From a virus, in IMG/VR virus record IMGVR_UViG_3300024346_000150, positions 1-42,954 of that record: DNA of 42,954 bases; one strand, given 5' to 3'. The notes beneath the pieces are model-generated. The model worked only from the letters and a program-made list of their open reading frames with translations, was not told the origin of the DNA and ran no database searches. A program made the position numbers and the translations under genes. Below are positions 2,300-40,407 of the stretch, one piece after another (the first letter of the stretch is position 1; each line of letters starts with the position of its first letter).

Positions 2300-2300
2300 T

Positions 2301-4418
2301 ATGGCAACTTCAGTAATAGACTTACTAAAAAAGAACGAAGGATTTAGCGGTACTATCTACAATGATACTGGAGGAGTCCCTACTATAGGATACGGCTTTA
2401 CTGCTATGGTTCTAGATGGTAAAGATGGCAGACCTAAATTTAGCGATTACAAAAACAAAGAAATGACTGAAGAAGAGGCTAACGACCTTTTAGTCAATAA
2501 GATTGTACCTTACTTTGAACGTCAACTTAGAAACAAACTAGATGACTATGATGGTTTAGCTGATAATCAAAGAGCAGCTATAGTAGACTTAGCATACAGA
2601 AATGGTGTAGCAGGGTTGGGAAAATCTGGGGTTTATAATGCTATTAACAAAGGTGACTTTGAAGAAGCTACAAATATTATTAGAGATTCAAAAGACTTAC
2701 AGAAAGAAAACAGTGTTGTATTGCAACCAGGTGACAAAGCTTATGAAGGTATTACAGGTCGCAATACAGAAGCAGCAGATGTGTTTAGCGGAGTACAAAC
2801 TGCTTCACCTCGTACTAAATCTTCTTCTCAGACTATTGCACCTGAAAAGAACAAACAACAAAAAGCTGTAGATGCTGTAAATAAAATAAAAAAAGCTCAA
2901 CAATTTAAAACGTTACGTGCTGAACTGTCTCCTGCTTTTCAATCTCAAATTGAGAAAGAAATAATTGACTTTTCTACTGAGTTTGCCTCAACAATGAAAA
3001 AAGGTTGGGTAGGTAGTAGAGATGAAATACCTGCAAAAAACAAAGAGTTTGATGAAAAACTTAATGAGTACGTAAGAAATAAATATAAAGAGCTTGGTCT
3101 AGATGAGTCTAAACCTGAAGACTGGGCTAAGATGAAAGCTATATTTAAATATGCATCATCTATACCTCAAGGCGAAGAGTTTGGAATAAAAATTGGAAAT
3201 AAAGATAATAGGCTTATTGATACCAATTTCGAAATTCTCATGGAAGACCGAAGTGGTAGTGGGAATTGGTACTCTATGTTTGGAGAAGGTGCTCAGTTGG
3301 ATGATACTATCCCTTCTAGCGTGCAAGAAGAACTTCAATCTGATGAATACGTTTCTAATGTAATAGCTGATAAAGAAAGGTATGGATTAGACTTTAAAAT
3401 TAATAAAGGGCAAAATATCTTAGATATAGACGAAGAGGAATTGTCTAAAAGAGTAGGTGTTGATATAAGTGGTAAGTATTTTGGTGAAGAAAAAGATAAG
3501 TCTCAACAGCTAATACAGGATGTATTTACTGGTGTAGAAACCCCACCTTCTACGGAAGATGCTAAAATTAAAGATTCGTTAGCAGAAGGTATAGCAGCAG
3601 GTGAGGCTTTAGAGCTTGAAGATGAAGAAATAGAAGAAGAAGAATCTATGAAGTCTTTAGGTTTAAATGAAGACGGTTCTCAAAAACCTCCAGTTGGGCC
3701 TGACAATCAAGAAAAAATGCGTAAAGCAGAAAAAGTGCTTTCTGGTTTGAAAGCTGCTGCAGGAATACTATCTTTATCTAAAGCTTTAAGAGACCCTGAA
3801 ATAGAAACCCCTGAATTATCTCCCCTTATTACAGAGGCTGTAGAGAAACAAAGGCAACTATCTAAATCAGGTCTTACAGCAGCTGAAAAATCAGCGGCTA
3901 TGTCAAACCTAGATAATGCGTATGCAGGAGCAATGAAGAATGTTTTAAGAGCCTCTGGTGGACAAAGAGGAATGTTCTTAGCTGGACAAGGTGTGGTCGA
4001 TGCAAATCGAATACAAGGGCTTAATCAACTTGCAGCTCAAGACGCTGCAGTTAGACAACAAAATGTACAGCAATACAATGCACTTGCATCTTCAGTTGGT
4101 CAAATGCAACTACAAAGAGATATGTCTGTAGAACAAATGAAGCAAGCTACAATGCAAAAAAACAGAGATGTTCTTGGAGGTATAGGAACAAATCTTGTTT
4201 CTGATGCTATAAGTGATGTTTCTTGGTATTTAAACCCTAACAGAGATTTAATAGAGCAAGCGCAGAGAACTAACCTTGAAGGTTTGGCAGGGTCTGATAG
4301 AGTTCCTTACGACGCTTCAAAAAGTGCTTCTGTAGGGTTGGCTTCTACAAACCCGAATATTAAATCGACTGAACAAGAAAAGCAGTTACAGAAACAAAAA
4401 AACAAAACTTTTAAATAA
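2301..4418 (+). CDS. Virion-associated lysozyme (T4-type, GH24) fused to a long ejection-type protein
   Basis: The first ~150 residues are a T4-lysozyme-like (glycoside hydrolase 24) domain: E13 in KKNEGF, D22 and T28 in NDTGGVPTIGYG reproduce the Glu-Asp-Thr catalytic triad with the same spacing as T4 lysozyme (11, 20, 26). The downstream QRAAIVDLAYRNG segment matches the family's second helical region. About 550 residues follow, low in Cys and rich in Glu, Lys and Gln, with an acidic stretch near residues 435-450 and Ala/Gln-rich helices toward the C-terminus. The position among virion genes and the fusion to a long helical tail argue for local peptidoglycan degradation during DNA entry, not host lysis; a separate M15 endolysin lies at 33.2 kb. 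Start ATG follows the previous TAG by one base. Confidence 0.82.
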   Translation: MATSVIDLLKKNEGFSGTIYNDTGGVPTIGYGFTAMVLDGKDGRPKFSDYKNKEMTEEEANDLLVNKIVPYFERQLRNKLDDYDGLADNQRAAIVDLAYRNGVAGLGKSGVYNAINKGDFEEATNIIRDSKDLQKENSVVLQPGDKAYEGITGRNTEAADVFSGVQTASPRTKSSSQTIAPEKNKQQKAVDAVNKIKKAQQFKTLRAELSPAFQSQIEKEIIDFSTEFASTMKKGWVGSRDEIPAKNKEFDEKLNEYVRNKYKELGLDESKPEDWAKMKAIFKYASSIPQGEEFGIKIGNKDNRLIDTNFEILMEDRSGSGNWYSMFGEGAQLDDTIPSSVQEELQSDEYVSNVIADKERYGLDFKINKGQNILDIDEEELSKRVGVDISGKYFGEEKDKSQQLIQDVFTGVETPPSTEDAKIKDSLAEGIAAGEALELEDEEIEEEESMKSLGLNEDGSQKPPVGPDNQEKMRKAEKVLSGLKAAAGILSLSKALRDPEIETPELSPLITEAVEKQRQLSKSGLTAAEKSAAMSNLDNAYAGAMKNVLRASGGQRGMFLAGQGVVDANRIQGLNQLAAQDAAVRQQNVQQYNALASSVGQMQLQRDMSVEQMKQATMQKNRDVLGGIGTNLVSDAISDVSWYLNPNRDLIEQAQRTNLEGLAGSDRVPYDASKSASVGLASTNPNIKSTEQEKQLQKQKNKTFK

Positions 4419-6184: not shown

Positions 6185-9100
6185 ATGGAAGAAAATCTGT
6201 GGAATCCAAACCCAGGAACGCCAAGTCAAGACGTTTCTAAGTACGACCAATCATTAGATAGTAACTTTAAAGAACCACAAATACAAGATAACATACAAGC
6301 TCCCCAAGAGCCTGTAACTCTTGTTGGTCAACCTAAACAAGGTTTAGATACTTCTGTAGAATCAGACTTATGGAGCTATACAGAAGCTGCAAGACAGCAA
6401 CCTCAGCTTCCAGACTTACCAGAGGCAGGTAATCCAGGTATTGATTACGATATGGGTCACCTAGAAAAAATAGGTAGGTCTTTGATGGTGGGTGTAGGTG
6501 ATATGTTTGATAGTATGGGTGACCTTGCAGATTTTGTAGGTGGTACTCCTTCAAGCATAATTGCAAAACAAGTTTATGGTGTAGATACAGCGAAACCTAT
6601 ATCTGATGCTTTTCATGGGTTTGCAGACTACTTACAATCTTATGGTGACACAGTACCAGGTTTACAAGACTTAGAAAATGTATCATGGGATGATTTAACA
6701 GATATTAATTTTTGGGAAACAGGGGTAGCGAGAATGCTGCCTTTTGCTTTATCATTACTAGTACCAGCAACTGCTGCTGCTAAAGGAGTTTCTTTACTTA
6801 CTAAAGGAGCTAAGTTTAAAAAAGCAGCTCAAGCTATTGCAGCAGGTGGACGTTCCGTAGGTGTGTCTTCTAAGTATGCGAACACACTAAACGCTACTAA
6901 GCTTATTAAATCAGGTTTAGGTGTTACAGCTGCAGGTTCTACTTCTAACATGATTGAAGGTGCTGCTCTAGCGGGTCAAGCTATGAACGAAGCTGTTACT
7001 CAAGGAATAAGCGTACAGGACGCAAAGCACGTCGGTAGACAAGTGTTTGTTGATAACTTAGCGTCTATGGGTGCTGATGTTATTCAGTATGGTTTATTTG
7101 CAGGGCAACTAAAAGTAGGTGGTGCATTAGGCAAGTCTCTAAAGACTGCAACTACTACTGCTGCTGGTACTAAAGCAGGTCAAGCTGCTGCTGCCACGTT
7201 AGGTAAAGCTGCTCAAACTAAAGTTATAAAAAGTCTTAAAGCTCCTACTATTAAGCCATTAATAAAGAATAGTTTTAAGGCTCTTGGAATGGGTGCTGCA
7301 CAAGGGGTTACTGATGGTGTTGTAGAGCAGTTTCAAGAAGTTTACCAGGACTGGTCTGTGCAAAGACGTATTGCTGAAGCTAAAGGAGAAGACTTTCCTT
7401 CTTACTTAGAGTTCTTTACCGCAGACGAACAAAGACCCACTCGTGTATTATCTTTCGCTACAAGTCTTTTAATGTCTGGCGTTAGCAATACTATACGTAC
7501 ATCTACAGAAAACAAAGCTACTATTGCTGGAGCTATTCAAAGTAGAGCTGAGTCGCATGAAGTGTTAGATATATTTAACAAAGACTTAGATGAAGGTACT
7601 TATAGGTTTAAAGATAAGGATGGAAATCTAAAAGAGTTAAATGCAGAACAAGCTACGTTGTTAGCTAAAGATACTGCAGCACGTACTCTTATTATGAACG
7701 CTGTTACCCAGGGTGAGTCTGAGGTTATTATGGAGTACTTTACAGCTCAACAAGAAGCTGGTACTATTACTGAAGAACAATTTAACGCCTACTCTGATGT
7801 ACTCATGCAAGTACAAGAGGCGGTACAAGCATACCCTACGCAAAACTTAAACAACAAAGAGAAAACAAGTTTAGTTTCTACCGCATGGCTTAATAGTACT
7901 GTAGCTAATAGCTTATCTCAGAAAAGAGAAGAGTTTGCTGCAAGAGCGGAAGAGATTCAAATGTTAGTGGAGGACGGTAAGATGTCTCAAGAGTTTGCAG
8001 ACAAAGAAATTGCAGGTTTAGAAAAAGCTGCTGAGTTGGCTCTTAAAGAAGAGGTTGATATACTAGATGCAACTGGTGAGAACATAAAATTTGTATATGA
8101 GGCAGCTAACTCTAGAGTAAAAGCAGAAGAATTTGCTAAAAACGAAGGCAAACAACTTACATCTATAGCTGAAAAAGAATCTAGAGGTGAAGAGCTTACG
8201 CAAAAAGATAAAGACTTAATAGATAAAAATAAAGCTTTTTATTCTTCTGCTAAAGCTACAATCGTTTCTGCAGAAGCAACAAATAAAGCCTCTGAGTTTG
8301 CTGGTAAAGAATTTAAGCAATATGGTGCACCTAAAATTCAGAAAGACGGCTCTGTAGAATTTGTTAGACAAAACAAAGACGGCTCTGTAGATACTATAGT
8401 TGTAGCTACTGACGGTAAAGTTAGCAAAGAAACTACTAGAGCTGATGAAACGGTAAATGCTGCTAAAGAAGAAATTGAACAAGAAATCAAAACAGAGTAT
8501 CAAAAATTTGTAGATACTGGCGAGGTTTCTGATGCAACTGTGAAAAACATAGCATACAAATTAACTCAAGGACAACCACTTAGTAAAGAAGAGGAAGCCA
8601 TGAGAATGGGTGCTAAAGACAGAGTTGAAGCTATACTTGTAAAGCAAAAAGAAGAAAAGGAAGTTGCTCCTGTGAAAACAAGAGATGGTAGGGTAGAAGA
8701 AAAAAAGACTATAAAAGAAAAAGCTAAAGGTTTGTATGACAACCTAAAAGCTTCTGCTGTAGTTGCTAAAAATTTAGTTAAAGAATACAAGAACAAAACC
8801 TTTACTAAGGAAAATTTAGGAAAAGTAATAGACGCTACAGAAAGAGCTGTAATTAAGAGACGTGTAAAGAATGCGTTTCCGCTTACTGCTGGTTCTGAGA
8901 ATGCTGTTGTATCATTGTTGTCAGAGAAAGCCGCAGACGGCCTTATATCAGTTAATGGTATAGTAAGTTTGGCTAAACGTGGGACAAACTTTGCAGGTTA
9001 TGCAGCTGGGTTAGGTGCGTTTATAAACTTTGATGCTGACAATGCAGACGAAGCATTTTTCCATGAGAATTTTCACATATTTAGAAAACTATACGGACAC

Positions 9101-12100
9101 CGCCCTGAAGTTCAGGAAATGATGGACCATATAGTTAATCAGCCTATATACAAGCAGACAAAATTAAATTACCAAGAAAACATTTTGTATTCTGTTCCTA
9201 CAGGCAAGAAAGGGGAAGTTACTGTATTGCGTCAAGAAGATGCATTAAAAGTTTTACAGAAACAAAGACTTGAAGAAGGGGATGCTTCTGTTGTACCTAC
9301 TACTATAGAAGACTACATATACTTAAACAAGGTAGAGCAAGTAACTCAAGATACGGTAAAAGAGTTTTACGAGGACTCTTTAGCTTTACTGCAACAAGAA
9401 GGTTACACTGAGTTGGCAGCTAAAGACCAGACTAATATACAAGATGAGTCTTTGACTAAGCTAGCTGGTTTATACGGTGCTTACAATCAGGATATGTTTA
9501 TATCTGACAAGAAGAAGAGAGATGCTTTTAATAACTCGCTTAAATCTTGGAAAGAAAAAATATCTAGCTCGTTTACTAAAGAAGAATCTGATTGGTCTCT
9601 AGAAACTGCATCTAAAGGATTGTATAAAAAGGAAGGCTTTGACTTAGAAGCTAAGTTTGCTGCTATTAAAACTATTATAGAAGAAAACGAAGCTGAGTAC
9701 GGCCCTTTAGCTAAAGAATCTCCATCTACTGTTCGTATACAAGAACTTAAAAAAGAAGAGCTTGTAAAACAAATAGAAGAAGAGGTAAACAATACTAGAG
9801 ACGAAGTAATATCTCAGGCTAAAGATTTCTATGCAAATGAAATGCCTAGTATACTTAGTGAAGAACAACTAAAAGACGCAGAACCTAGAAGGGTTTTAGA
9901 CGCTATAAAAGTTGCTGTAGGTACTAGTAAGATGTATAGAAAAGCTAAGGTTGCTTTAGCTAAGTCTATTCTATCTAAATATACTGTTGGCACAAAAGAA
10001 TACAATGAGGTAGAAGCCTTACTAGTAAGTAATGATAAACAAATTTCTCAGCATGTAAGAGAAATGTTTATGGCAAGTGTTTCTAACGAAGCTGCTAAAT
10101 CTATAGACAAACAAGCACAAGAAGAGATAGCACAACTAGATATGGACTTTGATGGTATTGAAAATCAAGACAATGCCTTAGTAGCTATTTTAAATGGTGA
10201 AAACAGAGACTTCGGTAAGAAGTTCTATATGATAATTTCAGACTTTATAAACTCTGAAAGGTATGTGGGAGATAGAGGTGGAGCGTATAAACAGCGTCTA
10301 GGTAAAGGTCATTTAATGTACCTACTTAAACAAATGCAGGTTCGCACAAAAACTGATGCAGCTTTTATAGACACTGTAAATAAAATTCAAGCAACACGAT
10401 TACCCGAAAAGCCTACAAAAGCGATAGATATAAATACAGCTATTCTATCTGATTTCTTTACTTACTTACAGTCTGAAGTAGATATAACTGGTGGTAACAT
10501 ATACGAGAATATATTGTTACAATTCCGTTCTATGACTACAGATAAAGCTTTTACTTTTAATGACGGTGTAGCATCACCTACGTTAAGCGTAAAGCTACGT
10601 AGACAAATAGCTAATGCAGTAATAGAAGAAAAAGGTTTTTATTTAGAAAATGCAAGCGTAAACATAGAGTCTAGTAAAAAAGAATCTTTAAAGTTTATTA
10701 GTAAGTTTGAAAATGCTATATACAATAAGAGTCAAGGGTATTCTGCAAATAGCAAGTATACAGAGTCTCAATACAAAGTATGGGCTGCTACAAAAAAGAG
10801 ATTAAACTATTCTCGTGCATTAGCCAATTTAATTAGCAAAGAAGAATTAACTGATTCGGAAGTGCGTAATTTTGTAAACACTTATCTATTATCTTCAGGC
10901 AATCAACTTAGCCCAAGTCAGTATACGGACTTAATTATTGAAGATGGCACTATAGGAAACTTTACTATAAACAAGTACTTTACTAAAGAAAAGTTAGAAG
11001 CAATGCTTTTAGCTAGCTTAAGTGCAAGGTTTTCTGGAGTGACAAAAGAAAACTACACCTTAGCAGAGATACAAGATAAAATGAAAAAAGAGGTGTTTGA
11101 TGTTATATTTGACACTGGTAATTTTTATTCATCAAAAGCTAAAGTTTTAAACTTAGAAACAGTAGATATTACTGATGCAACAAAACAAAACATACTAAGT
11201 AAGTTTCAAGAAAACATAGAAGAAGCTTACAAGTCAGAAGAATACAACAAGGCATCTATTGAGGTAATAGGAGATAACGCAAAGCTAAATGATATGCTAG
11301 GCGCAGAAGAAGTAACAAGAAAGATAATTACTTCTAAAATGTCTATGGAGGACGACTCTTACTTATACAGTATAACTAGCCCTGAAGGAAATACAGTAAA
11401 CAAAAACACTCGTAAGTACTTTTTAGAATACAATAAAGAAGCGTTAAAAGATTATGCTGAATCAAATCCTTTGGGTTATCAATCTTTGTTTACTAGTAGC
11501 GGTATTACAAATCCTTATGCTAGTTCTATTTTAAATGATAGTTTTCAGTTATTTTCTCTAGAGGGTGATACATGGCGAAATGTAGACAAAGATAAGATGA
11601 GCAATCTAGATGTTACAGCAAACGACTTGAATAACATTTTAGACGCAATAGAAAACGGTAACACTAAATACAAACAAGTAGTAAAAGACTACTCTGACAA
11701 GTCTAGAAGATACTACGCCGATGCTAATACTATCTTGACAGAGAAAGAGGCTAGAAAGCAGCTTAAAGACCTTCAGAAGTATCATAAAGGTAAGCTTCAG
11801 TCTTTAGTTGAGCGTCATAATAGTAATGATGACAACTTTGACGCTTTCTTAGTTATTAATAAAGATACCTTAGCTTACCTAGAAAAAGAATTTGGTAAAC
11901 TAAAAAACACCGCAAACAAAGCTAACATTGGAAAAGGAGAAGTAAACATTACTACAGATGTATTGTTTACGTTATCTATTAACGGTGTGACTTATGATTT
12001 GTTAAACGACAAGGATATTGCTAGAAGCGAGCAAGACTTGATGAACTTGTATGACGAAGAAACATTCCCTTTTAAGCCAGCAGACTACACAAGAGCTATA

Positions 12101-15100
12101 TATAATTATATAATAAACAAGTACTACTTACAAGATATGTTCGGTAATGTTATGCAAGAGCAAGACTTTACCATGAAGAATAAACGTGCTACTGGTTTTA
12201 TTGCACCACACGATTCAAGTTATAGTGGTGGTAGAGTAGAGTTAGTTATGTTCCAAGATGAAGAGATGTCTACAGAACAACTAGCTCATACAGTGCAAGT
12301 TATGGACACATCAGAGGATGGAAAGGTAACTCTCAGAAATGTAGAGCTGTCTGGTAGCCCTGCTCTTATGGATTCTGCATCATACATCACTGAAGAACAT
12401 GCTAACAAGCTTATCGCTAAACATGGTAATATAGTAGATGTTAAAGGCTCATTTAAACTTGTAGGCTTTGGAAACAACATAGATAACAAGACTATATCAG
12501 GAATGTTTGGTATGGAAAACAACAACTTCTATGCTAAAGGACATACCATTGTATTAAATAATAAGGTAAAAGGGCCTCTTAAAAGTATATATAAAGCTTT
12601 AAAAGCAAGAGAGCAATACTATGTAGATAATAACTTGTCTGAACATAACGCTATAGCTTATGCTGATTCTGCAATAAAGAAAGGTTCTATTAAAGGCGAA
12701 GAAGGTACTCCAAAAAACAAGTTAAGCTTGCAAGAATGGAATACACTGTCTAGTAGCCCTAACAAGATTAACGAATTTATAAACTCTTACTCACAAGATG
12801 CTACTAATAACTTGTTTGGTTATGATGGTAGATTCTTTGGTATACAAGGTGAGTTAGATAAAGACGCTACTACAGCAACTACATCTAAACAGATGGTTTC
12901 TGGTATCAACTTATTTAGACAGCACAACAATGCAGCTGTAAAAAGTAGAGCAAATCAAGTTCTAGATGCTGTAGCTAAAGCATTAGACCTACAGTATGAG
13001 CAAGAGATTAAGAACCTAACTAGAGAAGGCTTACTTCTTAAAGATTTAGACTCAGACTCTTTACCAGTATACGAAAAAACTTTACTTGAAGACGGTAACT
13101 TAGATATGCCTGCTGTTCGTGAACGAGCATTAAAACTATTACGGTCTAAACTAATAAAGAACACGTTTAAGATTAGAACGCTAGGTACAGTTTCTGTGCA
13201 AGAGTCTGATGTAATTTATGGGTACAAGCTAAAAGGTAAAGAGATTGTACAAACAAACGATGGTTTAAAAGCCATGACAGTTGTTAGAGGTAAGGATGGT
13301 TATAGCGTAACTTCAGCTGAGGCTATTGTATCACAGCACACTGCTTCACAATTAGGTATTACACAAAAAGATTTAGATGGTGGCAAGATAGTTGAGTTTA
13401 TAGCTACTCGTATACCTTCTTCTTCTGCAGGTTCTACAGTAGTTCTTAAGGTAAAAGGTATATCTACTAAGCCTGGTAATACTATTGCGGTGCATCCAAC
13501 TGTATCGGCTATTATAGGTTCTGACTTAGATGGTGATATGCTCCATTTAAACTATGTAAAAGAGGATGAAGACTTGTCTCCGCTAGATAAAGCTAAAAAC
13601 TCTATTATACAAAACATTATAGCTTTATATAAAATGCCAGAGGTGCAAAACTCTCTTACACAAGAAATAGAGATAGCAACTTTGACTAAGGCGCACAATA
13701 AAGAATTGTTTGGTTCTGAGCAAGGGGATAAAGATATACCTAATGACTTCCACCCTTTAGGTGCTAACGCTATGTATGGTCAAACAAAGGGTAATGCCCC
13801 TATGATTGGTATTATAGCTTCTCAAAACTTAGTCTACAACTATGTAGGTGAGGGTAACCCACAGCTTATATACAACGAAAAACCATTAAGCATTGTGTAT
13901 AATGGAAAGACTTATACTAACATAGACAACTCTATCAAGCAAGATGGCTCTGGTACATGGTATGAGGTTGCTAAGTGGTTAAACTTAGTATTGGATGATG
14001 GAAAGAATAACGTAAGACAGAAGTTTATGTTTGTAAAGAACACAAGCAATATTTTTGTTATGCTTATTAAGATGGGTGTGCCACCTGCAAAAGTATCAGC
14101 ATTTATAAAAAGTGCACAATACTTAGATGCTATGTACGACTCTAAAGGTGAACTAAACATACTGTACAAAGATTCTGTATCAGCAGATAAATCTGCTAAT
14201 ATAAAGAAACTGATTAGTGATAAGTATACTGAAGGAGATGGTATACAGTTTAACATAGATAACGCAACTCAATCTGACTACATGGCAATGTTTGTAGCGT
14301 TAAGCTCTGTTAGTACTGATATATTTGATTTAAGTCATTTTGTAAGCCTGGATAAGTCTTTTGAAGCAGACCCATTGAACGGGTTGGTAGCTCACCAAAA
14401 GGCTATGCAGGCTTTGGAAAGACAAACAGACATCGCTAATAATCTAGGTGCAAACTTGTTATTCAAACGCAACAAAGAAGTAAACTTGCAGATTATAAAC
14501 AGATACTTTGCAGAAGACACTCATTACACTAATGGTTATAAAGAAGGCTTATTAGGTTCTTCCGATGAGTTTAGGTTATTAGATAATGACGGAATTTTAG
14601 CTGCAGAAAAAAACACTCAGTTTAAAAAAGATGAAGACGGCAAGATTGTAATAAAAGATGGAAAAAAAGTTGTACAAAAAGTAAACTCTACTTCTATGTT
14701 TACTAACCATGAAAATCTTGAAGGCTTATCTACAACTGAAGACGTAAACACTAATATGGCTAAAGCCTTAAATGTTATGCGTTTAGCTGTACACTCTAAG
14801 ATGCCTATTGGTAGTTACGTATATGATGTATACAGAAACGCAGACTATGGACTAAAAGAGCAGTACTCTACAAAACAGTTTGAGAAATTTAGCAAAGAAC
14901 AACAATACGGATTGGTTACAGAAGCAGTCAATGAATACCTCAACCAGAACCAAATGATTGGTGATAGGGTAAATAGCTTTGTAGGTATTATGAATAGCGT
15001 AATAAATCATGAGTTTGTTACAGTAAACAATACACCTCAACGTATTAGAGTTATTAGATTTAAGCCTAATATGGAAATAATAGGTAATGAGTTAGACTTT

Positions 15101-18100
15101 ACTCAGCAGGTTCGTATTATACAGAAAGATTTTGCTTCTATGCCAAAGGAGATACAAAACTTCTTTGTGGCTTATGACTTCTTAACTACGGGTTGGGGTA
15201 GTAATGGTAACTCTATATCACCTTTCTTTAGTCAAGAAAAGATTAGGCAAATTAACGATACAAGTAAACGAGCTAATAGAGATGGTTCGTTTGAACAAGA
15301 CTTAGCTTCTTATATAAAGAAGAACGAACTATACAATGCGGGACTATTCTCGAACCCTAAGCAAGACGGTATAGTAAATGCTCGTCGTGTGGCTGTTCTG
15401 TCTTACCTAGCGTTATTTGGGAATGACGGGAAGCTTGATAAAAAGGGTTTATTTAGTATACAAAGCTATAATATAGGTAAATCAGAAACTAATACCGTAA
15501 CAACTATACAAGATGCTCATTGGAAGGCTGATAGGTTTGAGATGCGTAAAGAAGATATTTCTTTAACAACTAGACCTCTAGAAATATTTAGTGGCGTACA
15601 AGAAACAGCTATGCTAAATATATTCGGTGAAGCTATGCGTCAGCCTGCTGCAAAAGCAAGTAACTCTATGGAGTTTGAGTCAGGTGACAAGCAATACTTA
15701 AAAGTACCTGTGTATGAATTCCCTGGGACAGACTATCAAGGTGTAGGAGAAACTATGTCTTCTGAAAAGTACTTTAAGAAAATGCTTCCTGAAGGGGTTG
15801 AATACAAAGATGTAGACCCTCTATATCAAAATGAACTACAAGCTAAGTATGAGGCTTACGTATTTTCTGTACAAAAAGTTAAAGAGTTATATGAAGAATT
15901 ACGCTTATCTAATATAGAAGAAGCAAATTACGCATACGACCCTAATAACAAGAAAGCACTAGACGCTAAGTTTAGAGAAGCTCAAACCTGGTTTAGAGAA
16001 TACCATGATAAACTAAATTACGATAGAGTAACCGTAGATGTAGATAAAGATACTATAGCGTTGCCTACAGAATCAACTAAAGACTATGGTAATATTGATG
16101 AACTAGCTGCTAACCCACTACGACGTTACCTAGAGTACAACTTTGGTAACCACATAGCTAACAAGCAAATGTACGACTGGGGTGTTCAAAATGGTAAAGA
16201 CTTTTTAGATACTATAACTGAAGACAGAAGAGGTAAAGACATTAGCCAACTTAACATGTGGTTGTCTCCTGGGGACTTTGGAAGAGGTAAACCTGCTATA
16301 GCTTACATAAACAAGAATATGAAGCTTACGCACATGGCTTACACTAGAAACATACATCTAGTTACAAAAGAGATGAACGACAAGTTGGAGGCTTTGTATA
16401 AAGCTAACTTTGGTGACTCTACTAAAGCTAAAGCAGCTAGATTGTGGTTAAACTACATGCCTATGGGTACTAGAGGTATATCACAAAAGTTATTTGGTAA
16501 CTTATTAGATGAGCAGACAGGATTGCAAAAGACTATACTTCCTGATTTGACTGTTACATACAGAGATTCTTCTGATATGAAAATTAAGAAAGGGTTAGTA
16601 TATCAAGGTGGTGACTTCCAGGGTAGAGTAAATACTAACTCAGAAGCTTATAAAGCTTTAAACCAAGCTGAAAGAGACTATTTAGAAATGTATACAAAGT
16701 ATACAGCTTTCTATGCTGCTTTAATTAAGTCAAAAGGTTTATATGGCAAAACACGTGGTACTTCTTATGTTCCTTCCGTTACCTCTTCTAGATGGGAAAC
16801 TTTACAGAAGCGAGGATTGTTTGGTGTATACTACCAAATGTTTAGAGGCGACCATGATTTAGCTGACGTAATGATTGAAGATGTAAACCCTTTGACAGGA
16901 GATACAGAAACACTTGATTACTTTAGCTGGAAGTCAATCTACATGTATGGCTCTGGTCAAGACATTGTAGAAACTACTGTAACTGCTAAAAGCGAAACTA
17001 GTAAGACGTTTAAGAAAGGTACTAAGTCTGACGCAGAACGAGTAAAAGGCTTAATGCGAATTAAAGATAAAGCTAAACAGCATATAAAAGACGGTAAAGA
17101 TGCTTTAGGGAATGACGTAGCAATCGGTTCTAGAATCAACGATATGATGGCTGCAGAGTCAGAAGAGTCGCAAAACAGGTTTAACGCCAAGCGTTCTATG
17201 ACTTCTGCATACTTAGGAACTAATAACATGCATAGAGCCTTACGTGAGTACGTATCTAAATTTATGTTCCAACATGGTAATGCTTTCCTAGATGAAGAAA
17301 CAAACACCTATACACAGCTTTCTTGGGCTGGTGATGACAGAGTTTTTGTTTTAGATGAAGGGGTTTCTAGACAGGAAGTTGAGCAAAACAGATTAGCCTT
17401 TTCTGGTTTTGAAGATAAAAAACAAGAGGTGGATGCTGCTATTGCTAACCTAGGTGGAGGTAAAGTATTTGAACCTACTGTACAGTATGGTGCAGCAAAG
17501 AATAAGAACGCAATTAACTACCTACAAAAAGTAGTTAAGCGTGGCCTTATAAGCAAAGAGAGAAACTTTACGTTTAGTGACTTTGAATCTGAGTCTAAAG
17601 TAACCAACTTCTTTGTTAACTGGACTATGTATGTTGCTCTTGGTTTAAACGTGCCTGCTGCAATAGGTAACGTTGCTATTGGTAAGTTTAACGCATACCG
17701 TCAAATGGGTGGTACTAACACTTTATTAGGAGAAAAAAGATACTGGGGTGTAAGCGACTCTAAAGGCTATGACCATGAGCAAATGAAAAAAGCTCGTAAG
17801 ATGATAGAAGAGTTTGGTATTCTTACATATAGAGCTGACGAAATTGCAGAAGGTGTAGGTGGTAGTTCTTTAAGTGCTTTAATATTCTCGCCAATGATTG
17901 CTGCTGAAAACTGGATACAGCAAGCTGCTTTCTTAGGTGCACTTACAGAAGAACAATGGAACTCGTACTACGTAGATAGTAAAGGTAACCTAGAACTAAA
18001 AGAGGGTGCTACAGGTATTTCTCAGCTAGAGCTAGCTAAGTTAGAGCGTGACGTAATTAATGTACAAGGTCGTGGTTACTCTGAAACTGATTCTCGTATG

Positions 18101-18703
18101 ATTCAGCTATACGCTTTATCAAATATGACAATGCAGTTTAAGCGATGGTTTCCTACATTCTTAAAAGATAGGTTTGGACAAGAAGAAATAGATGACTTAG
18201 GCACAATTAGAATGGGTGCATACACTGCTGCGGCAGACTTCTTTACAAAGCTTAAAGATGAAGGTAAGCAGTTTGATATTAAAACTTGGAATGCAGAGCT
18301 TAAAAAGCTTCCTAAACACCAACAAGAGGCTGTCATGAGGTATTGGAGAGGTACACACGGTGTTATGCTTGTTGCAATGCTTCTTGGTATGTCAGCAATG
18401 TTTACGGACGACGATGAGAAAGATACTGAAGCTATGGAGTTTATGGAAAAGTTGTTGGGTGATATGTTACTTATTGTAAACGCTCCTAAGCTTACGTATA
18501 TGGCAAACGTACCTGCTTTAAACACTTTTAAAAATCTTAACTTAGCTGTGTTCCACGCAGTAAAAGGGACAGAATATAAACGTGAATCTAAGTACGGAAA
18601 GAAAGGTGATAAAAAGTATGTATCTAACTTGGCTCAATTATTACCAAGCCCTGCTAGAATACCACTTCAACAAAAAAAGAAAGAGAAAAGGTCTCTTAGA
18701 TAA
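6185..18703 (+). CDS. Giant 4172-residue polyvalent virion protein with RNA-polymerase-like DxDGD motif and HExxH motif
   Basis: One uninterrupted 12.5-kb frame. Seen: hydrophobic, Ala-rich stretch at about 177-205; an HENFH (HExxH) motif at 960-964, as in zinc metallopeptidases; GIQGE followed by a Lys-containing helix near 2219-2245; then RIPSSS at 2409 and, 38 residues on, GSDLDGDMLHL with the acidic triad D2447, D2449, D2451. This RIP...GSDxDxD arrangement matches, from memory, the double-psi beta-barrel active site of single-chain two-barrel RNA polymerases in crAss-like phage virions; DxDGD is the metal-binding signature of that superfamily. Near 3808-3845 is another hydrophobic segment (NWTMYVALGLNVPAAIG), then MTMQFKRWFPTFLKDRFG and a last hydrophobic stretch before 4110. 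I infer a protein ejected into the host that transcribes early genes, with protease or other modules. Nuclease or toxin modules could also be present; polymerase activity is not proved by the motif. Confidence 0.72.
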   Translation: MEENLWNPNPGTPSQDVSKYDQSLDSNFKEPQIQDNIQAPQEPVTLVGQPKQGLDTSVESDLWSYTEAARQQPQLPDLPEAGNPGIDYDMGHLEKIGRSLMVGVGDMFDSMGDLADFVGGTPSSIIAKQVYGVDTAKPISDAFHGFADYLQSYGDTVPGLQDLENVSWDDLTDINFWETGVARMLPFALSLLVPATAAAKGVSLLTKGAKFKKAAQAIAAGGRSVGVSSKYANTLNATKLIKSGLGVTAAGSTSNMIEGAALAGQAMNEAVTQGISVQDAKHVGRQVFVDNLASMGADVIQYGLFAGQLKVGGALGKSLKTATTTAAGTKAGQAAAATLGKAAQTKVIKSLKAPTIKPLIKNSFKALGMGAAQGVTDGVVEQFQEVYQDWSVQRRIAEAKGEDFPSYLEFFTADEQRPTRVLSFATSLLMSGVSNTIRTSTENKATIAGAIQSRAESHEVLDIFNKDLDEGTYRFKDKDGNLKELNAEQATLLAKDTAARTLIMNAVTQGESEVIMEYFTAQQEAGTITEEQFNAYSDVLMQVQEAVQAYPTQNLNNKEKTSLVSTAWLNSTVANSLSQKREEFAARAEEIQMLVEDGKMSQEFADKEIAGLEKAAELALKEEVDILDATGENIKFVYEAANSRVKAEEFAKNEGKQLTSIAEKESRGEELTQKDKDLIDKNKAFYSSAKATIVSAEATNKASEFAGKEFKQYGAPKIQKDGSVEFVRQNKDGSVDTIVVATDGKVSKETTRADETVNAAKEEIEQEIKTEYQKFVDTGEVSDATVKNIAYKLTQGQPLSKEEEAMRMGAKDRVEAILVKQKEEKEVAPVKTRDGRVEEKKTIKEKAKGLYDNLKASAVVAKNLVKEYKNKTFTKENLGKVIDATERAVIKRRVKNAFPLTAGSENAVVSLLSEKAADGLISVNGIVSLAKRGTNFAGYAAGLGAFINFDADNADEAFFHENFHIFRKLYGHRPEVQEMMDHIVNQPIYKQTKLNYQENILYSVPTGKKGEVTVLRQEDALKVLQKQRLEEGDASVVPTTIEDYIYLNKVEQVTQDTVKEFYEDSLALLQQEGYTELAAKDQTNIQDESLTKLAGLYGAYNQDMFISDKKKRDAFNNSLKSWKEKISSSFTKEESDWSLETASKGLYKKEGFDLEAKFAAIKTIIEENEAEYGPLAKESPSTVRIQELKKEELVKQIEEEVNNTRDEVISQAKDFYANEMPSILSEEQLKDAEPRRVLDAIKVAVGTSKMYRKAKVALAKSILSKYTVGTKEYNEVEALLVSNDKQISQHVREMFMASVSNEAAKSIDKQAQEEIAQLDMDFDGIENQDNALVAILNGENRDFGKKFYMIISDFINSERYVGDRGGAYKQRLGKGHLMYLLKQMQVRTKTDAAFIDTVNKIQATRLPEKPTKAIDINTAILSDFFTYLQSEVDITGGNIYENILLQFRSMTTDKAFTFNDGVASPTLSVKLRRQIANAVIEEKGFYLENASVNIESSKKESLKFISKFENAIYNKSQGYSANSKYTESQYKVWAATKKRLNYSRALANLISKEELTDSEVRNFVNTYLLSSGNQLSPSQYTDLIIEDGTIGNFTINKYFTKEKLEAMLLASLSARFSGVTKENYTLAEIQDKMKKEVFDVIFDTGNFYSSKAKVLNLETVDITDATKQNILSKFQENIEEAYKSEEYNKASIEVIGDNAKLNDMLGAEEVTRKIITSKMSMEDDSYLYSITSPEGNTVNKNTRKYFLEYNKEALKDYAESNPLGYQSLFTSSGITNPYASSILNDSFQLFSLEGDTWRNVDKDKMSNLDVTANDLNNILDAIENGNTKYKQVVKDYSDKSRRYYADANTILTEKEARKQLKDLQKYHKGKLQSLVERHNSNDDNFDAFLVINKDTLAYLEKEFGKLKNTANKANIGKGEVNITTDVLFTLSINGVTYDLLNDKDIARSEQDLMNLYDEETFPFKPADYTRAIYNYIINKYYLQDMFGNVMQEQDFTMKNKRATGFIAPHDSSYSGGRVELVMFQDEEMSTEQLAHTVQVMDTSEDGKVTLRNVELSGSPALMDSASYITEEHANKLIAKHGNIVDVKGSFKLVGFGNNIDNKTISGMFGMENNNFYAKGHTIVLNNKVKGPLKSIYKALKAREQYYVDNNLSEHNAIAYADSAIKKGSIKGEEGTPKNKLSLQEWNTLSSSPNKINEFINSYSQDATNNLFGYDGRFFGIQGELDKDATTATTSKQMVSGINLFRQHNNAAVKSRANQVLDAVAKALDLQYEQEIKNLTREGLLLKDLDSDSLPVYEKTLLEDGNLDMPAVRERALKLLRSKLIKNTFKIRTLGTVSVQESDVIYGYKLKGKEIVQTNDGLKAMTVVRGKDGYSVTSAEAIVSQHTASQLGITQKDLDGGKIVEFIATRIPSSSAGSTVVLKVKGISTKPGNTIAVHPTVSAIIGSDLDGDMLHLNYVKEDEDLSPLDKAKNSIIQNIIALYKMPEVQNSLTQEIEIATLTKAHNKELFGSEQGDKDIPNDFHPLGANAMYGQTKGNAPMIGIIASQNLVYNYVGEGNPQLIYNEKPLSIVYNGKTYTNIDNSIKQDGSGTWYEVAKWLNLVLDDGKNNVRQKFMFVKNTSNIFVMLIKMGVPPAKVSAFIKSAQYLDAMYDSKGELNILYKDSVSADKSANIKKLISDKYTEGDGIQFNIDNATQSDYMAMFVALSSVSTDIFDLSHFVSLDKSFEADPLNGLVAHQKAMQALERQTDIANNLGANLLFKRNKEVNLQIINRYFAEDTHYTNGYKEGLLGSSDEFRLLDNDGILAAEKNTQFKKDEDGKIVIKDGKKVVQKVNSTSMFTNHENLEGLSTTEDVNTNMAKALNVMRLAVHSKMPIGSYVYDVYRNADYGLKEQYSTKQFEKFSKEQQYGLVTEAVNEYLNQNQMIGDRVNSFVGIMNSVINHEFVTVNNTPQRIRVIRFKPNMEIIGNELDFTQQVRIIQKDFASMPKEIQNFFVAYDFLTTGWGSNGNSISPFFSQEKIRQINDTSKRANRDGSFEQDLASYIKKNELYNAGLFSNPKQDGIVNARRVAVLSYLALFGNDGKLDKKGLFSIQSYNIGKSETNTVTTIQDAHWKADRFEMRKEDISLTTRPLEIFSGVQETAMLNIFGEAMRQPAAKASNSMEFESGDKQYLKVPVYEFPGTDYQGVGETMSSEKYFKKMLPEGVEYKDVDPLYQNELQAKYEAYVFSVQKVKELYEELRLSNIEEANYAYDPNNKKALDAKFREAQTWFREYHDKLNYDRVTVDVDKDTIALPTESTKDYGNIDELAANPLRRYLEYNFGNHIANKQMYDWGVQNGKDFLDTITEDRRGKDISQLNMWLSPGDFGRGKPAIAYINKNMKLTHMAYTRNIHLVTKEMNDKLEALYKANFGDSTKAKAARLWLNYMPMGTRGISQKLFGNLLDEQTGLQKTILPDLTVTYRDSSDMKIKKGLVYQGGDFQGRVNTNSEAYKALNQAERDYLEMYTKYTAFYAALIKSKGLYGKTRGTSYVPSVTSSRWETLQKRGLFGVYYQMFRGDHDLADVMIEDVNPLTGDTETLDYFSWKSIYMYGSGQDIVETTVTAKSETSKTFKKGTKSDAERVKGLMRIKDKAKQHIKDGKDALGNDVAIGSRINDMMAAESEESQNRFNAKRSMTSAYLGTNNMHRALREYVSKFMFQHGNAFLDEETNTYTQLSWAGDDRVFVLDEGVSRQEVEQNRLAFSGFEDKKQEVDAAIANLGGGKVFEPTVQYGAAKNKNAINYLQKVVKRGLISKERNFTFSDFESESKVTNFFVNWTMYVALGLNVPAAIGNVAIGKFNAYRQMGGTNTLLGEKRYWGVSDSKGYDHEQMKKARKMIEEFGILTYRADEIAEGVGGSSLSALIFSPMIAAENWIQQAAFLGALTEEQWNSYYVDSKGNLELKEGATGISQLELAKLERDVINVQGRGYSETDSRMIQLYALSNMTMQFKRWFPTFLKDRFGQEEIDDLGTIRMGAYTAAADFFTKLKDEGKQFDIKTWNAELKKLPKHQQEAVMRYWRGTHGVMLVAMLLGMSAMFTDDDEKDTEAMEFMEKLLGDMLLIVNAPKLTYMANVPALNTFKNLNLAVFHAVKGTEYKRESKYGKKGDKKYVSNLAQLLPSPARIPLQQKKKEKRSLR

Positions 18704-38496: not shown

Positions 38497-38643
38497 TTAA
38501 CTTCCGCAGGCTTCGCAGTCTTCATCATCTATGCTGCAAGCGTCTGGTTGGTCTTTGTCTTCTAAGTCTACTATCCATGAGTCCCATGTTTCTCTAGCGA
38601 CTTCTTCGTTCTTTAGTTGTTCTGCTGTTTTTTCTGTTAACAT
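38497..38643 (-). CDS. Small acidic protein with C-terminal Cys motif, 48 residues
   Basis: A short frame: MLTEKTAEQLKNEEVARETW, then DSWIVDLEDKDQP and DACSIDDEDCEACGS. The charged helix followed by a C-x(6)-C-x-x-C tail is a pattern I know from small proteins of Bacteroidota phages. The start is coupled to the upstream 44-residue gene (TAATG). The three Cys may bind metal. Function unknown. The regular frame, coupling and neighbours support it. Confidence 0.58.
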   Translation of the reverse strand: MLTEKTAEQLKNEEVARETWDSWIVDLEDKDQPDACSIDDEDCEACGS

Positions 38644-38777
38644 TACTTTGTTCTTTTTTTTAAAGCACGTAAGCTTATGTCAAGCTTGTACTTGATTGAT
38701 AAATATCTTTGGACTATCCGTAGCCCATGCTTTTTACGTTTAGCTTTTTGTATAGCTTCTTGTATAATACCTTTCAT
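38643..38777 (-). CDS. Small HTH-like basic protein, 44 residues
   Basis: MKGIIQEAIQKAKRKKHGLR followed by IVQRYLSIKYKLDISLRALK and KRTK. The segment VQRYLSIKYKLDISLRALKKR parallels TQRILRKKFNIIVSQRDIQRR of the 65-residue protein at 38928 on the other side of the tRNA-like gene, so both may be small HTH proteins of one family. Highly basic. Its stop overlaps the next start. No binding site is known. Confidence 0.52.
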   Translation of the reverse strand: MKGIIQEAIQKAKRKKHGLRIVQRYLSIKYKLDISLRALKKRTK

Positions 38778-38791
38778 GTAAAATGATTTGC

Positions 38792-38937
38792 TGTAGGGGG
38801 AAGAGTCGAACTTCCACGTAGAGGTTAGCTAAAGGACAAGTTGTGCACAATGGTGGTCAACCCGCTATCCTAAAGTTTATTCCTTTATCTACACCCTCGA
38901 GACAGGAGGGCATGTCTGCCAGTTTCATCACCCTACA
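38792..38937 (-). tRNA. Class II tRNA-like gene with oversized variable arm; anticodon position reads GTC
   Basis: Fold on the minus strand: acceptor TGTAGGG/CCCTACA (7 perfect pairs), TG, D stem ATG/CAT with AAACTGGCAGA loop holding GG, anticodon stem CCCTC/GAGGG with loop CTGTCTC (T33, GTC at 34-36), T stem GGAAG/CTTCC with TTCGACT loop. The variable arm begins GTAGA/TCTAC and carries 65 extra bases, the first seven of which (TAAAGGA) pair with TCCTTTA, making an arm of ~75 bases. Arm type and D-arm style resemble tRNA-Leu, yet GTC would be Asp and base 37 is T. CCA is not encoded (GCAA follows). It may be a true but inserted tRNA, a decayed one, or a tRNA mimic. Confidence 0.55.
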
Positions 38938-39125
38938 TTACTAGCTTGCTCTCTCTTTGAGTTTAAGCCATCTAACCTTCTTTGTATATCACGTTGAGAT
39001 ACAATGATGTTAAACTTCTTTCTAAGTATTCTTTGAGTCTTATTCAGTCCTGTACCGCTATTAGCGTGCATGTCTGATACAGCGTTTACTATTTGCTGCT
39101 CTTGTTCTGTTAGTTTACTCTTCAT
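38928..39125 (-). CDS. Small HTH-like protein, 65 residues
   Basis: MKSKLTEQEQQIVNAVSDMH with NKTQRILRKKFNIIVSQRDI followed by QRRLDGL: the sequence T-Q-R-I-L-R-K-K ... S-Q-R-D-I-Q-R-R looks like a recognition-helix segment preceded by a helix. Similar to the 44-residue product nearby. Its stop lies inside the acceptor stem of the tRNA-like gene (10-base overlap). The start overlaps the end of the upstream gene by 11 bases. A DNA-binding regulator of phage genes is plausible. Confidence 0.58.
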   Translation of the reverse strand: MKSKLTEQEQQIVNAVSDMHANSGTGLNKTQRILRKKFNIIVSQRDIQRRLDGLNSKREQASNVG

Positions 39126-39904: not shown

Positions 39905-40049
39905 GCGCTTTTTCTTTATCTTTTTTTGTACTATCTATACCTAAGTTACTTTGCAGTATAGCGTTCTTGTGTAATAACTTGTCTATTTTACTCCTGGTCT
40001 TCTTGTTCGTGTAGTAAGGAGATAAACTTTGATTTTTCTTGGTAGCCAT
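39822..40049 (-). CDS. Small charged helical protein, 75 residues
   Basis: MATKKNQSLSPYYTNKKTRS, then DKLLHKNAILQSNLGID and KEIYNKIKTLDTEFA with a C-terminal FPEYK. Charged helical protein, no known family. It overlaps the DnaA-domain gene by 83 bases and the GGCT-like gene by 62 bases; I keep it because the start codon context is good and the product is soluble and non-random. One of the overlapping starts could be lower than assumed. Unknown function. Confidence 0.45.
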   Translation of the reverse strand: MATKKNQSLSPYYTNKKTRSKIDKLLHKNAILQSNLGIDSTKKDKEKAHGETKEIYNKIKTLDTEFAENSFPEYK

Positions 40050-40407
40050 ATATTCCTACGTTATTTATTTTAGCACGAGCTGGTATCATTTCATTAAAAT
40101 ACAACCATGCATTGATTAGTTTTATGTTGTTGTTTTTATCTATTGTCTTGATAATAGTTTTCTTTCTTTTATACCAGATAGGATGACCTTCTAGCATGTC
40201 TAAATCATCAAGAGTAGCCCTACTAACGTCGTAGAGCTCTCCTGATATATTAGTTAAAGAAAACGATTCAGACACGTATGGAATACCATCTTCGTACATT
40301 ATATACCTATCTTTAGTAAGTCCTGTACCTATGTATTTACTACCTGCTAGTAGTCTATGGTTTCCATGTGCTCTTTTCAGAGTTCCGTATACAAATACTG
40401 TTTCCAA
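39988..40407 (-). CDS. Gamma-glutamylcyclotransferase-fold (AIG2/GGCT-like) protein
   Basis: A 139-residue protein beginning METVFVYGTLKRAHGNHRLL: the YGTLK glycine loop (Y7-L10) is the hallmark of this fold. SGELYDV near 55-61 and LDDLDMLEGHP with catalytic Glu E73 followed by YKRK complete the pattern. Family members form 5-oxoproline from gamma-glutamyl compounds or split epsilon-gamma-glutamyl-lysine; phage members are known but their substrate is not. Its place among replication genes hints at an effect on host metabolism or on modified proteins. Confidence 0.8.
   Translation of the reverse strand: METVFVYGTLKRAHGNHRLLAGSKYIGTGLTKDRYIMYEDGIPYVSESFSLTNISGELYDVSRATLDDLDMLEGHPIWYKRKKTIIKTIDKNNNIKLINAWLYFNEMIPARAKINNVGIYGYQEKSKFISLLHEQEDQE

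What the first reader, a model, noticed from the sequence alone, without database searches (positions are those of the whole stretch)
38792..38937. tRNA-like gene with a ~75-base variable arm and mismatched identity
All helices of a class II tRNA are present, but the variable arm holds a 65-base insert that itself pairs (TAAAGGA/TCCTTTA), the anticodon position reads GTC (Asp) in a Leu/Ser-like body, base 37 is a pyrimidine, and CCA is not encoded. It could be a small intron-like insertion, a decoy for host synthetases or tRNA nucleases, or a stable phage RNA in tRNA disguise. The adjacent gene ends inside its acceptor stem.
Basis: partly seen in the sequence, partly recalled or inferred. Interest (0 to 1): 0.72.

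Follow-up and report, generated by a model that had tools for sequence, protein, structure and literature searches.

The report
Non-decoding aspartate tRNA with giant arm
A crAss-like phage carries a member of an undescribed tRNA-derived RNA family, widespread in Cytophagales bacteria, that looks built to be loaded with aspartate (and probably converted to asparagine) but not to be read by the ribosome; if that is right, the cell makes asparagine on a dedicated carrier RNA.

Summary
In detail: minus strand 38790-38937 is a complete class-II tRNA-like RNA (154 bits, E 3e-45 against a model of its relatives), invisible to ARAGORN and Rfam. It is not an oddity of this phage. I found 195 distinct relatives (53 viral, 142 chromosomal), in 120 of 146 sampled genomes of one order (Cytophagales), with strong compensatory change in both the tRNA core and the variable-arm domain.

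Across all 195, the bacterial aspartyl-tRNA-synthetase determinants are kept (U35, C36, C38 195/195; G34 192/195; G73 in all 155 scored). Normal decoding features are broken: U33 and A37 never occur together. The first pair U1-A72 and the missing U20a are the published signals that let GatCAB amidate Asp-tRNA to Asn-tRNA; the host's own tRNA-Asp has the opposite signals.

RNA-bearing genomes keep GatCAB although they have AsnRS, mostly GlnRS, and an AspRS that looks discriminating. None of the 40 tested has the AsnB found in genomes lacking GatCAB.

Best reading: a dedicated carrier for tRNA-dependent asparagine synthesis. The family is near certain; the function is inferred (about 0.6). Eight RNA-negative relatives that still have GatCAB are unexplained. 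No intron and no decay; a decoy role is not excluded.

The parts
38790..38937 (-). whole RNA (146 nt plus G73-C74)
   Evidence: R1 covariance model 154.2 bits, E 3.4e-45; 7/7, 5/5 and 5/5 bp stems
38931..38937 (-). 5' acceptor strand TGTAGGG, U1 (pairs with A72) and G2 (pairs with C71)
   Evidence: 1-72 is U-A in 150 of 155, G2-C71 in 155 of 155 distinct members; compensatory changes at 1, 5, 6 and 7
38912..38928 (-). D arm, ATG/CAT stem, loop AAACTGGCAGA with G18G19-C20-A21 and no base 20a
   Evidence: GG[CT]AG in 195 of 195 members; stem changes A-U, U-A, G-C
38894..38910 (-). anticodon arm CCCTC-CTGTCTC-GAGGG
   Evidence: one stem pair changes compensatorily, the others are invariant in the 24-sequence alignment
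38899..38905 (-). anticodon loop C32 U33 G34 U35 C36 U37 C38: Asp determinants, abnormal base 37
   Evidence: 195 members: 35, 36, 38 invariant, U33 with A37 never together
38816..38893 (-). giant variable arm (78 nt)
   Evidence: lengths 21-111 nt in relatives; covarying domain
38888..38892 (-). 5' side of variable-arm base stem GTAGA
   Evidence: pairs with TCTAC at 38818-38822; U-A, G-C, A-U, C-G seen at the second pair
38818..38822 (-). 3' side of variable-arm base stem TCTAC
38876..38883 (-). conserved internal-loop strand GGAATAAA
   Evidence: conserved facing CUAA in long-arm relatives
38825..38828 (-). conserved internal-loop strand CTAA
38866..38871 (-). inner stem 5' strand AGGATA (pairs with TGTCCT)
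   Evidence: compensatory changes at four of these pairs
38833..38838 (-). inner stem 3' strand TGTCCT
38851..38863 (-). conserved GGGTTGACCACCA element between the strands of the inner stem
   Evidence: GACCAC invariant in 22 of 22 long-arm sequences (they were chosen for holding it)
38799..38815 (-). T arm GGAAG-TTCGACT-CTTCC
   Evidence: three of five pairs with double changes
38790..38798 (-). 3' acceptor strand CCCTACA, then G73 and C74
   Evidence: G73-C74 in 155 of 155 distinct members
38928..39125 (-). 65-aa ORF of unknown function overlapping the RNA 5' end by 10 bases (neighbour, not part of the RNA)
38643..38777 (-). 44-aa ORF just downstream of the RNA, loosely similar to the 65-aa protein (neighbour)
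   Evidence: no Pfam match

Best explanation
The RNA is a dedicated, non-decoding carrier for tRNA-dependent asparagine synthesis in Bacteroidota, and this crAss-like phage brings its own copy. Shown: a conserved tRNA-derived RNA gene family whose chromosomal copies look like independent transcription units. Inferred steps: (1) the host's AspRS, which looks discriminating, loads it with aspartate, because it keeps G34 U35 C36, C38 and G73; (2) GatCAB amidates it to Asn-RNA, because it has U1-A72 and lacks U20a, unlike tRNA-Asp; (3) a broken loop (no U33 or no A37) and a giant variable arm keep Asn-RNA with an Asp anticodon off the ribosome, where it would put Asn at Asp codons; (4) Asn is released for AsnRS and metabolism. 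The variable arm may dock the AspRS-GatCAB complex. A phage copy would keep asparagine production going during infection.
For: Family and structure. Loop statistics on 195 distinct members: U35, C36, C38 invariant, G34 192/195; 33/37 combinations UU, AU, UC, GU, UG, GA but never UA, which is the host tRNA-Asp loop CUGUCAC. The unbiased sets (loop-free pattern; model hits) show the same. Published rules: bacterial Asp identity is G73, G10, G34, U35, C36, C38 (PMC9976931); amidation of Asp-tRNA is conferred by U1-A72 and blocked in tRNA-Asp by G1-C72 plus U20a (PMC9976931; U1-A72 also PMC4206432). RNA: U1-A72 150/155, no 20a 195/195; host tRNA-Asp: G1-C72 and U20a. Genomes: GatB in 40/40 RNA-positive, AsnRS 40/40, GlnRS 33/40. 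Among AsnRS+GlnRS genomes GatB is in 33/33 RNA-positive against 6/13 RNA-negative (Fisher 3e-5). The AsnB ortholog is in 6/7 GatB-negative and 0/63 GatB-positive genomes. No RNA-positive AspRS has His at the E. coli L30 position, which all six AsnRS-less genomes (needing a non-discriminating enzyme) have; 31/33 carry the KN motif shared with 6/7 GatCAB-less genomes and 0/23 GatB-positive RNA-negative ones. G160 has no AsnA or AsnB-like protein above cut-off. Window phage host: crAss muzzle protein PF25731, E 1e-32.
Against: No experiment. Genomes are not phylogenetically independent; the KN-type AspRS is found in most Cytophagales checked, with or without the RNA. Of 15 normal-sized RNA-negative genomes in that order, 8 have GatB and no AsnA/AsnB match at the threshold used, so RNA and GatCAB are not strictly coupled; GlnRS was not tested in those. 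One RNA-positive genome (G387) shows no GatB at 1e-60. Six RNA-positive genomes also have AsnA. Larger asparagine-synthase-like proteins (about 600-650 aa) of unknown role occur in most RNA-positive genomes. G10, a listed Asp determinant, is present in only 19 of 155. G34 is lost in 3 members. Four phage members have A1-U72. tRNA-Asn in the one genome read in full also seems to start U1-A72, so it too could serve GatCAB if aspartylated. How Asn would be released is unknown, and class-II bulk might hinder AspRS.
Confidence: 0.6

Rival explanations
1. An aspartyl donor outside translation without amidation: the RNA is charged with Asp and an unknown transferase moves Asp to a lipid, peptide or wall precursor.
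For: Same AspRS determinants and broken decoding features. Dedicated non-decoding tRNAs that donate amino acids are known (staphylococcal tRNA-Gly; my knowledge).
Against: Does not explain U1-A72, the missing U20a or the presence of GatCAB in genomes that also have AsnRS and GlnRS. No conserved transferase-like neighbour stood out.
Confidence: 0.15
2. A decoy or sponge: the RNA absorbs an anticodon nuclease, tRNA-guanine transglycosylase or AspRS, protecting real tRNA-Asp or starving the host during infection.
For: The U33-G34-U35 stretch suits tRNA-guanine transglycosylase and colicin-E5-like nucleases (my knowledge). Phages carry it, including phages with a full tRNA set.
Against: Chromosomal in 120 of 146 sampled genomes of one order, as an apparent housekeeping gene. 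U33 is A or G in 13 members, which breaks the UGU motif while keeping U35, C36 and C38. Does not explain U1-A72 and the missing U20a.
Confidence: 0.12
3. A translating tRNA-Asp isoacceptor with special decoding (frameshifting, stress or rare-context use of GAC/GAU).
For: GUC anticodon; the short-arm members L098 and L101 are called tRNA-Asp by ARAGORN.
Against: Pyrimidine 37 in almost all members, non-U33 in 13, never the normal U33+A37 pair; arms up to 111 nt; the one genome read through also has an ordinary tRNA-Asp. If GatCAB acts on it, decoding would be mutagenic.
Confidence: 0.08
4. Decayed tRNA, chance fold or spliced tRNA with an intron-like insert.
For: Abnormal base 37, no CCA, poor fold z-score of the single sequence.
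Against: Extensive compensatory change in core and arm, terminator-like hairpins after 98 of 130 chromosomal copies, graded arm lengths.
Confidence: 0.02

Closest known systems
tRNA-dependent asparagine synthesis on tRNA-Asn (non-discriminating AspRS plus GatCAB; Deinococcus, Thermus, Bdellovibrio; PMC4206432)
   Same: Same predicted chemistry and enzymes: Asp loaded on an RNA with U1-A72, amidated by GatCAB, in cells that may also have AsnRS and GlnRS.
   Different: [quoted passage not shown] Here the substrate would be a separate RNA with an Asp anticodon, so a discriminating AspRS suffices, and the product would not decode.
Non-proteinogenic tRNA-Gly isoacceptors for staphylococcal cell-wall synthesis (from memory)
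   Same: tRNA genes specialised away from the ribosome for a metabolic job.
   Different: Other amino acid and enzymes; ordinary size; loss of ribosome use by other changes.
tRNA-Leu (class II)
   Same: D arm and overall cloverleaf resemble Leu tRNAs, which score 25-60 bits with the model.
   Different: G73 instead of A73, Asp anticodon loop, U1-A72, variable arm up to 111 nt; members score 73-157 bits.
tRNA-Asp
   Same: Anticodon loop CUGUCUC against CUGUCAC, C38, G73, G2-C71.
   Different: Class II body, U1-A72 instead of G1-C72, no U20a, base 37 or 33 abnormal.
Class-II tRNAs with unusual arms (tRNA-Sec; PMC7609411)
   Same: Long variable arm, G73.
   Different: No 8/5 or 9/4 acceptor domain, no UCA anticodon. 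That review has no phage or Bacteroidetes case under the words searched.

Membership tests
bacterial tRNA-Asp identity (AspRS substrate) | G34, U35, C36, C38 | tested here: met
   192, 195, 195 and 195 of 195 distinct members; rule from PMC9976931
bacterial tRNA-Asp identity (AspRS substrate) | G73 | tested here: met
   155 of 155
bacterial tRNA-Asp identity (AspRS substrate) | G10 | tested here: not met
   G at position 10 in 19 of 155; A or U in most
bacterial tRNA-Asp identity (AspRS substrate) | aspartylation by AspRS | not testable with these tools
   needs an aminoacylation assay
GatCAB substrate | U1-A72 | tested here: met
   150 of 155; A1-U72 in four phage members and one A-A
GatCAB substrate | no U20a in the D loop | tested here: met
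   GG[CT]AG, no 20a, 195 of 195; rule from PMC9976931
GatCAB substrate | GatCAB encoded in the same genome | tested here: met
   GatB 40 of 40 RNA-positive genomes; one later genome, G387, without a match
decoding tRNA | U33 with a purine at 37 | tested here: not met
   U33 with A37 0 of 195; U33 with G37 2 of 195
tRNA (Rfam RF00005 / ARAGORN) | scores above the curated cut-off | tested here: not met
   ARAGORN accepts only the short-arm members L098 and L101
tRNA-Leu | A73 and a Leu anticodon | tested here: not met
   G73 155 of 155; GUC anticodon
spliced intron-containing tRNA | a removable insert in an otherwise normal tRNA | tested here: not met
   arm length is graded (21-111 nt) and the arm itself covaries as a structured domain

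The most novel reading that the evidence does not exclude
Cytophagales and their phages make asparagine on a dedicated, ribosome-excluded carrier RNA that AspRS loads and GatCAB amidates, with the giant variable arm as a docking platform; phages carry it as a metabolic RNA gene.
Probability: 0.55. Interest if true: 0.93.

Novelty: new variant of a known kind. Interest (0 to 1): 0.87.

Why it matters
A tRNA-sized gene present in most of a bacterial order is missed by the standard finders used here. It could explain why bacteria with both AsnRS and GlnRS keep GatCAB, a question raised in PMC4206432 for several phyla including Bacteroidetes. If right, it is amino-acid synthesis on a purpose-built RNA that is charged like a tRNA but kept from decoding, and a metabolic RNA gene carried by phages. 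It would also give a natural AspRS/GatCAB substrate whose loop separates charging from decoding.

Tried and rejected
Single-sequence folding gave an alternative fold and no significance. Rfam at E up to 10 gave only a chance U12 match. The TAAAGGA/TCCTTTA pairing was dropped after relatives broke it. Complementarity of CCTGTCTC to a 16S helix-34 sequence recalled from memory was considered and set aside: ordinary tRNA-Asp is nearly as complementary and some members have non-U33. Isolate phage DNA and protein searches gave no relatives. Literature searches found no description of this RNA; most subscription papers are not in the library. A neighbour-gene search for a partner enzyme found synteny (Lrp-type regulator, pseudouridine-synthase-like gene) but no obvious amino-acid link. 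GatB, AsnA, AsnB, AspRS and GlnRS are not encoded in the fetched phage stretches. The AspRS KN signature first looked perfectly linked to the RNA but is largely a clade trait in Cytophagales, so I lean on it less.

Full report
What is there. On the minus strand of the window, 38937 down to 38792 reads TGTAGGG-TG-ATG-AAACTGGCAGA-CAT-G-CCCTC-CTGTCTC-GAGGG-[78 nt]-GGAAG-TTCGACT-CTTCC-CCCTACA, followed by GCA. Every tRNA helix is present. ARAGORN and Rfam report nothing. Folding alone gives no significance (z = -0.95), so the case rests on relatives.

Relatives. A pattern from this sequence hit three near-identical IMG/VR contigs. Looking near related phage genes and with looser patterns and a hand-written descriptor gave dozens more. 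Five lie outside Bacteroidota and lack the rest of the RNA; the others are Bacteroidota, mostly Cytophagales, and those I could read that are not cut off by a contig end show the same RNA. A covariance model (R1) scores members 73-157 bits and ordinary Leu tRNAs 25-60. It finds the RNA in 32 of 297 sampled Bacteroidota genomes and 120 of 146 genomes of the order of G001, an Algoriphagus, 1-7 copies each, often in tandem. The window phage has a crAss-type muzzle protein (PF25731, E 1e-32), which points to a Bacteroidota host.

It is a conserved structure. In 24 diverse sequences 99.1% of core cells pair (88.9% in shuffles), 12 of 24 pairs show changes on both sides, and no shuffle or slid register comes near. 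The variable arm covaries too: in 22 long-arm sequences 91.5% of cells pair against 73.5% in shuffles, covariation 0.57 against 0.20. The arm has a base stem, a conserved internal loop (AUAAA facing CUAA), an inner stem ending AUA/UGU, a GGGUUGACCAC element and a variable hairpin. Arm length runs from 21 to 111 nt. Some large phages also have a hairpin inserted in the D loop.

It is a gene of its own. Chromosomal copies lie repeatedly opposite an Lrp-type regulator or downstream of a pseudouridine-synthase-like gene (names by eye from the protein sequences), and 98 of 130 are followed by a terminator-like hairpin against 12 of 130 control positions. In the one complete genome whose tRNAs I read (G002), ARAGORN on the best 30 of 39 tRNA matches shows one ordinary tRNA-Asp and most other species, so the RNA is an addition. 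In the window the RNA sits in a run of small minus-strand genes; the upstream 65-aa ORF ends inside it.

What the conserved letters say. Over 195 distinct members, U35, C36 and C38 are invariant and G34 is kept in 192; G73 and G2-C71 are invariant in 155. The published bacterial Asp set is G73, G10, G34, U35, C36, C38 (PMC9976931); G10 is not kept (19 of 155). The host tRNA-Asp loop is CUGUCAC. In this family the combination U33 with A37 never occurs: most have U37, some C37 or G37, two chromosomal lineages (G286, G294) have A33, some phages have G33 or A33, and the one member with A37 (L289) has G33. So the letters AspRS needs are kept and a letter the ribosome normally needs is changed each time. 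My first patterns contained CTGTCTC and are biased; the loop-free pattern and the model hits are not, and they show the same rule.

The second signal. Amidation of Asp-tRNA by bacterial GatCAB is conferred by U1-A72 and blocked in tRNA-Asp by G1-C72 and U20a (PMC9976931; U1-A72 also PMC4206432). The RNA has U1-A72 in 150 of 155 and no base 20a in 195 of 195; the host tRNA-Asp has G1-C72 and U20a. The RNA thus joins Asp charging to GatCAB recognition.

Genome test. In 40 RNA-positive and 30 RNA-negative Bacteroidota genomes: GatB 40/40 and 23/30; AsnRS 40/40 and 24/30; GlnRS 33/40 and 13/30. Where AsnRS and GlnRS are both present GatCAB has no textbook job, yet it is there in 33/33 RNA-positive against 6/13 RNA-negative genomes (Fisher 3e-5). 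The AsnB ortholog occurs in 6/7 genomes without GatB and 0/63 with it. AsnA is in 6 of 40 RNA-positive genomes, five of which lack GlnRS. The AspRS anticodon domain of RNA-positive genomes looks like that of genomes without GatCAB and unlike that of genomes without AsnRS, which all have His at the E. coli L30 position. That this His marks non-discriminating enzymes is from memory, but it fits the controls here. One RNA-positive genome, G160, has no AsnA or AsnB-like protein above cut-off at all.

Where the test is weak. Within Cytophagales the KN-type AspRS occurs with and without the RNA, so that association is partly descent. Of 15 normal-sized RNA-negative genomes in the order, three lack GatB, two have AsnB, one has AsnA and one has an additional GatB-AspRS fusion, but eight have GatB with none of these; they may lack GlnRS or carry a diverged RNA, which I could not test. 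Most RNA-positive genomes also hold larger asparagine-synthase-like proteins of unknown role. Fisher values ignore relatedness.

Reading. The most economical account is a dedicated carrier: AspRS loads Asp, GatCAB turns it into Asn, a broken loop and a huge arm keep the product from putting Asn at Asp codons, and Asn is released for AsnRS. Charging, amidation, ribosome exclusion and release are all inferred. A phage copy would supply the carrier during infection. Rivals are an Asp donor for an unknown transferase, a decoy, and an unusual decoding tRNA. Decay, chance and an intron are rejected.

Noticed in passing
L435 (G356:C6:120900-124500), ORF 186-3524: A 1112-aa open frame fusing a GatB-like domain to an AspRS with the non-discriminating-type VRDHGD motif, in an RNA-negative genome of the order that also has a standard AspRS; it looks like a one-chain transamidosome. 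The contig could be a contaminant of that assembly.
   Followed up: partly
L097, L099, L113, L119, L130, L131, L152: Large-phage members of the family carry a second inserted hairpin, in the D loop, as well as the giant variable arm; two of these stretches (L099, L113) also hold a tmRNA.
   Followed up: partly
L123 12808-12883, L135 6620-6695, L100 3663-3738: A separate tRNA about 245-325 nt upstream of the RNA for which ARAGORN proposes a four-base anticodon (agtc); possibly an odd tRNA-Asp or a frameshift tRNA. Rfam accepts the L123 copy as a tRNA.
   Followed up: no
window 38928-39125 and 38643-38777: Two short basic proteins flank the RNA (65 and 44 aa) and look alike around a K-F/Y-x-I/L-x-x-S-x-R-x-x-x-R stretch, possibly small DNA-binding paralogs.
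   Followed up: partly
window 6185-18703: A single 4172-aa ORF in a crAss-like phage contig; the first 1000 residues match no Pfam family.
   Followed up: partly
window 39988-40407: Gamma-glutamyl cyclotransferase-like gene (PHROG 2520) in the phage, next to exonuclease and RusA-like genes.
   Followed up: no
L348 (G082:C23:55337-55413): A family member with a class-I-size variable loop (7 nt) and loop CTATCTC, followed by a strong terminator-like hairpin: a reduced or diverging form.
   Followed up: no
L277, L280, L287, L291, L295, L297, L299, L301: Phage members of only about 95 nt with G33 or A33 in the anticodon loop; short-arm forms of the same RNA.
   Followed up: partly
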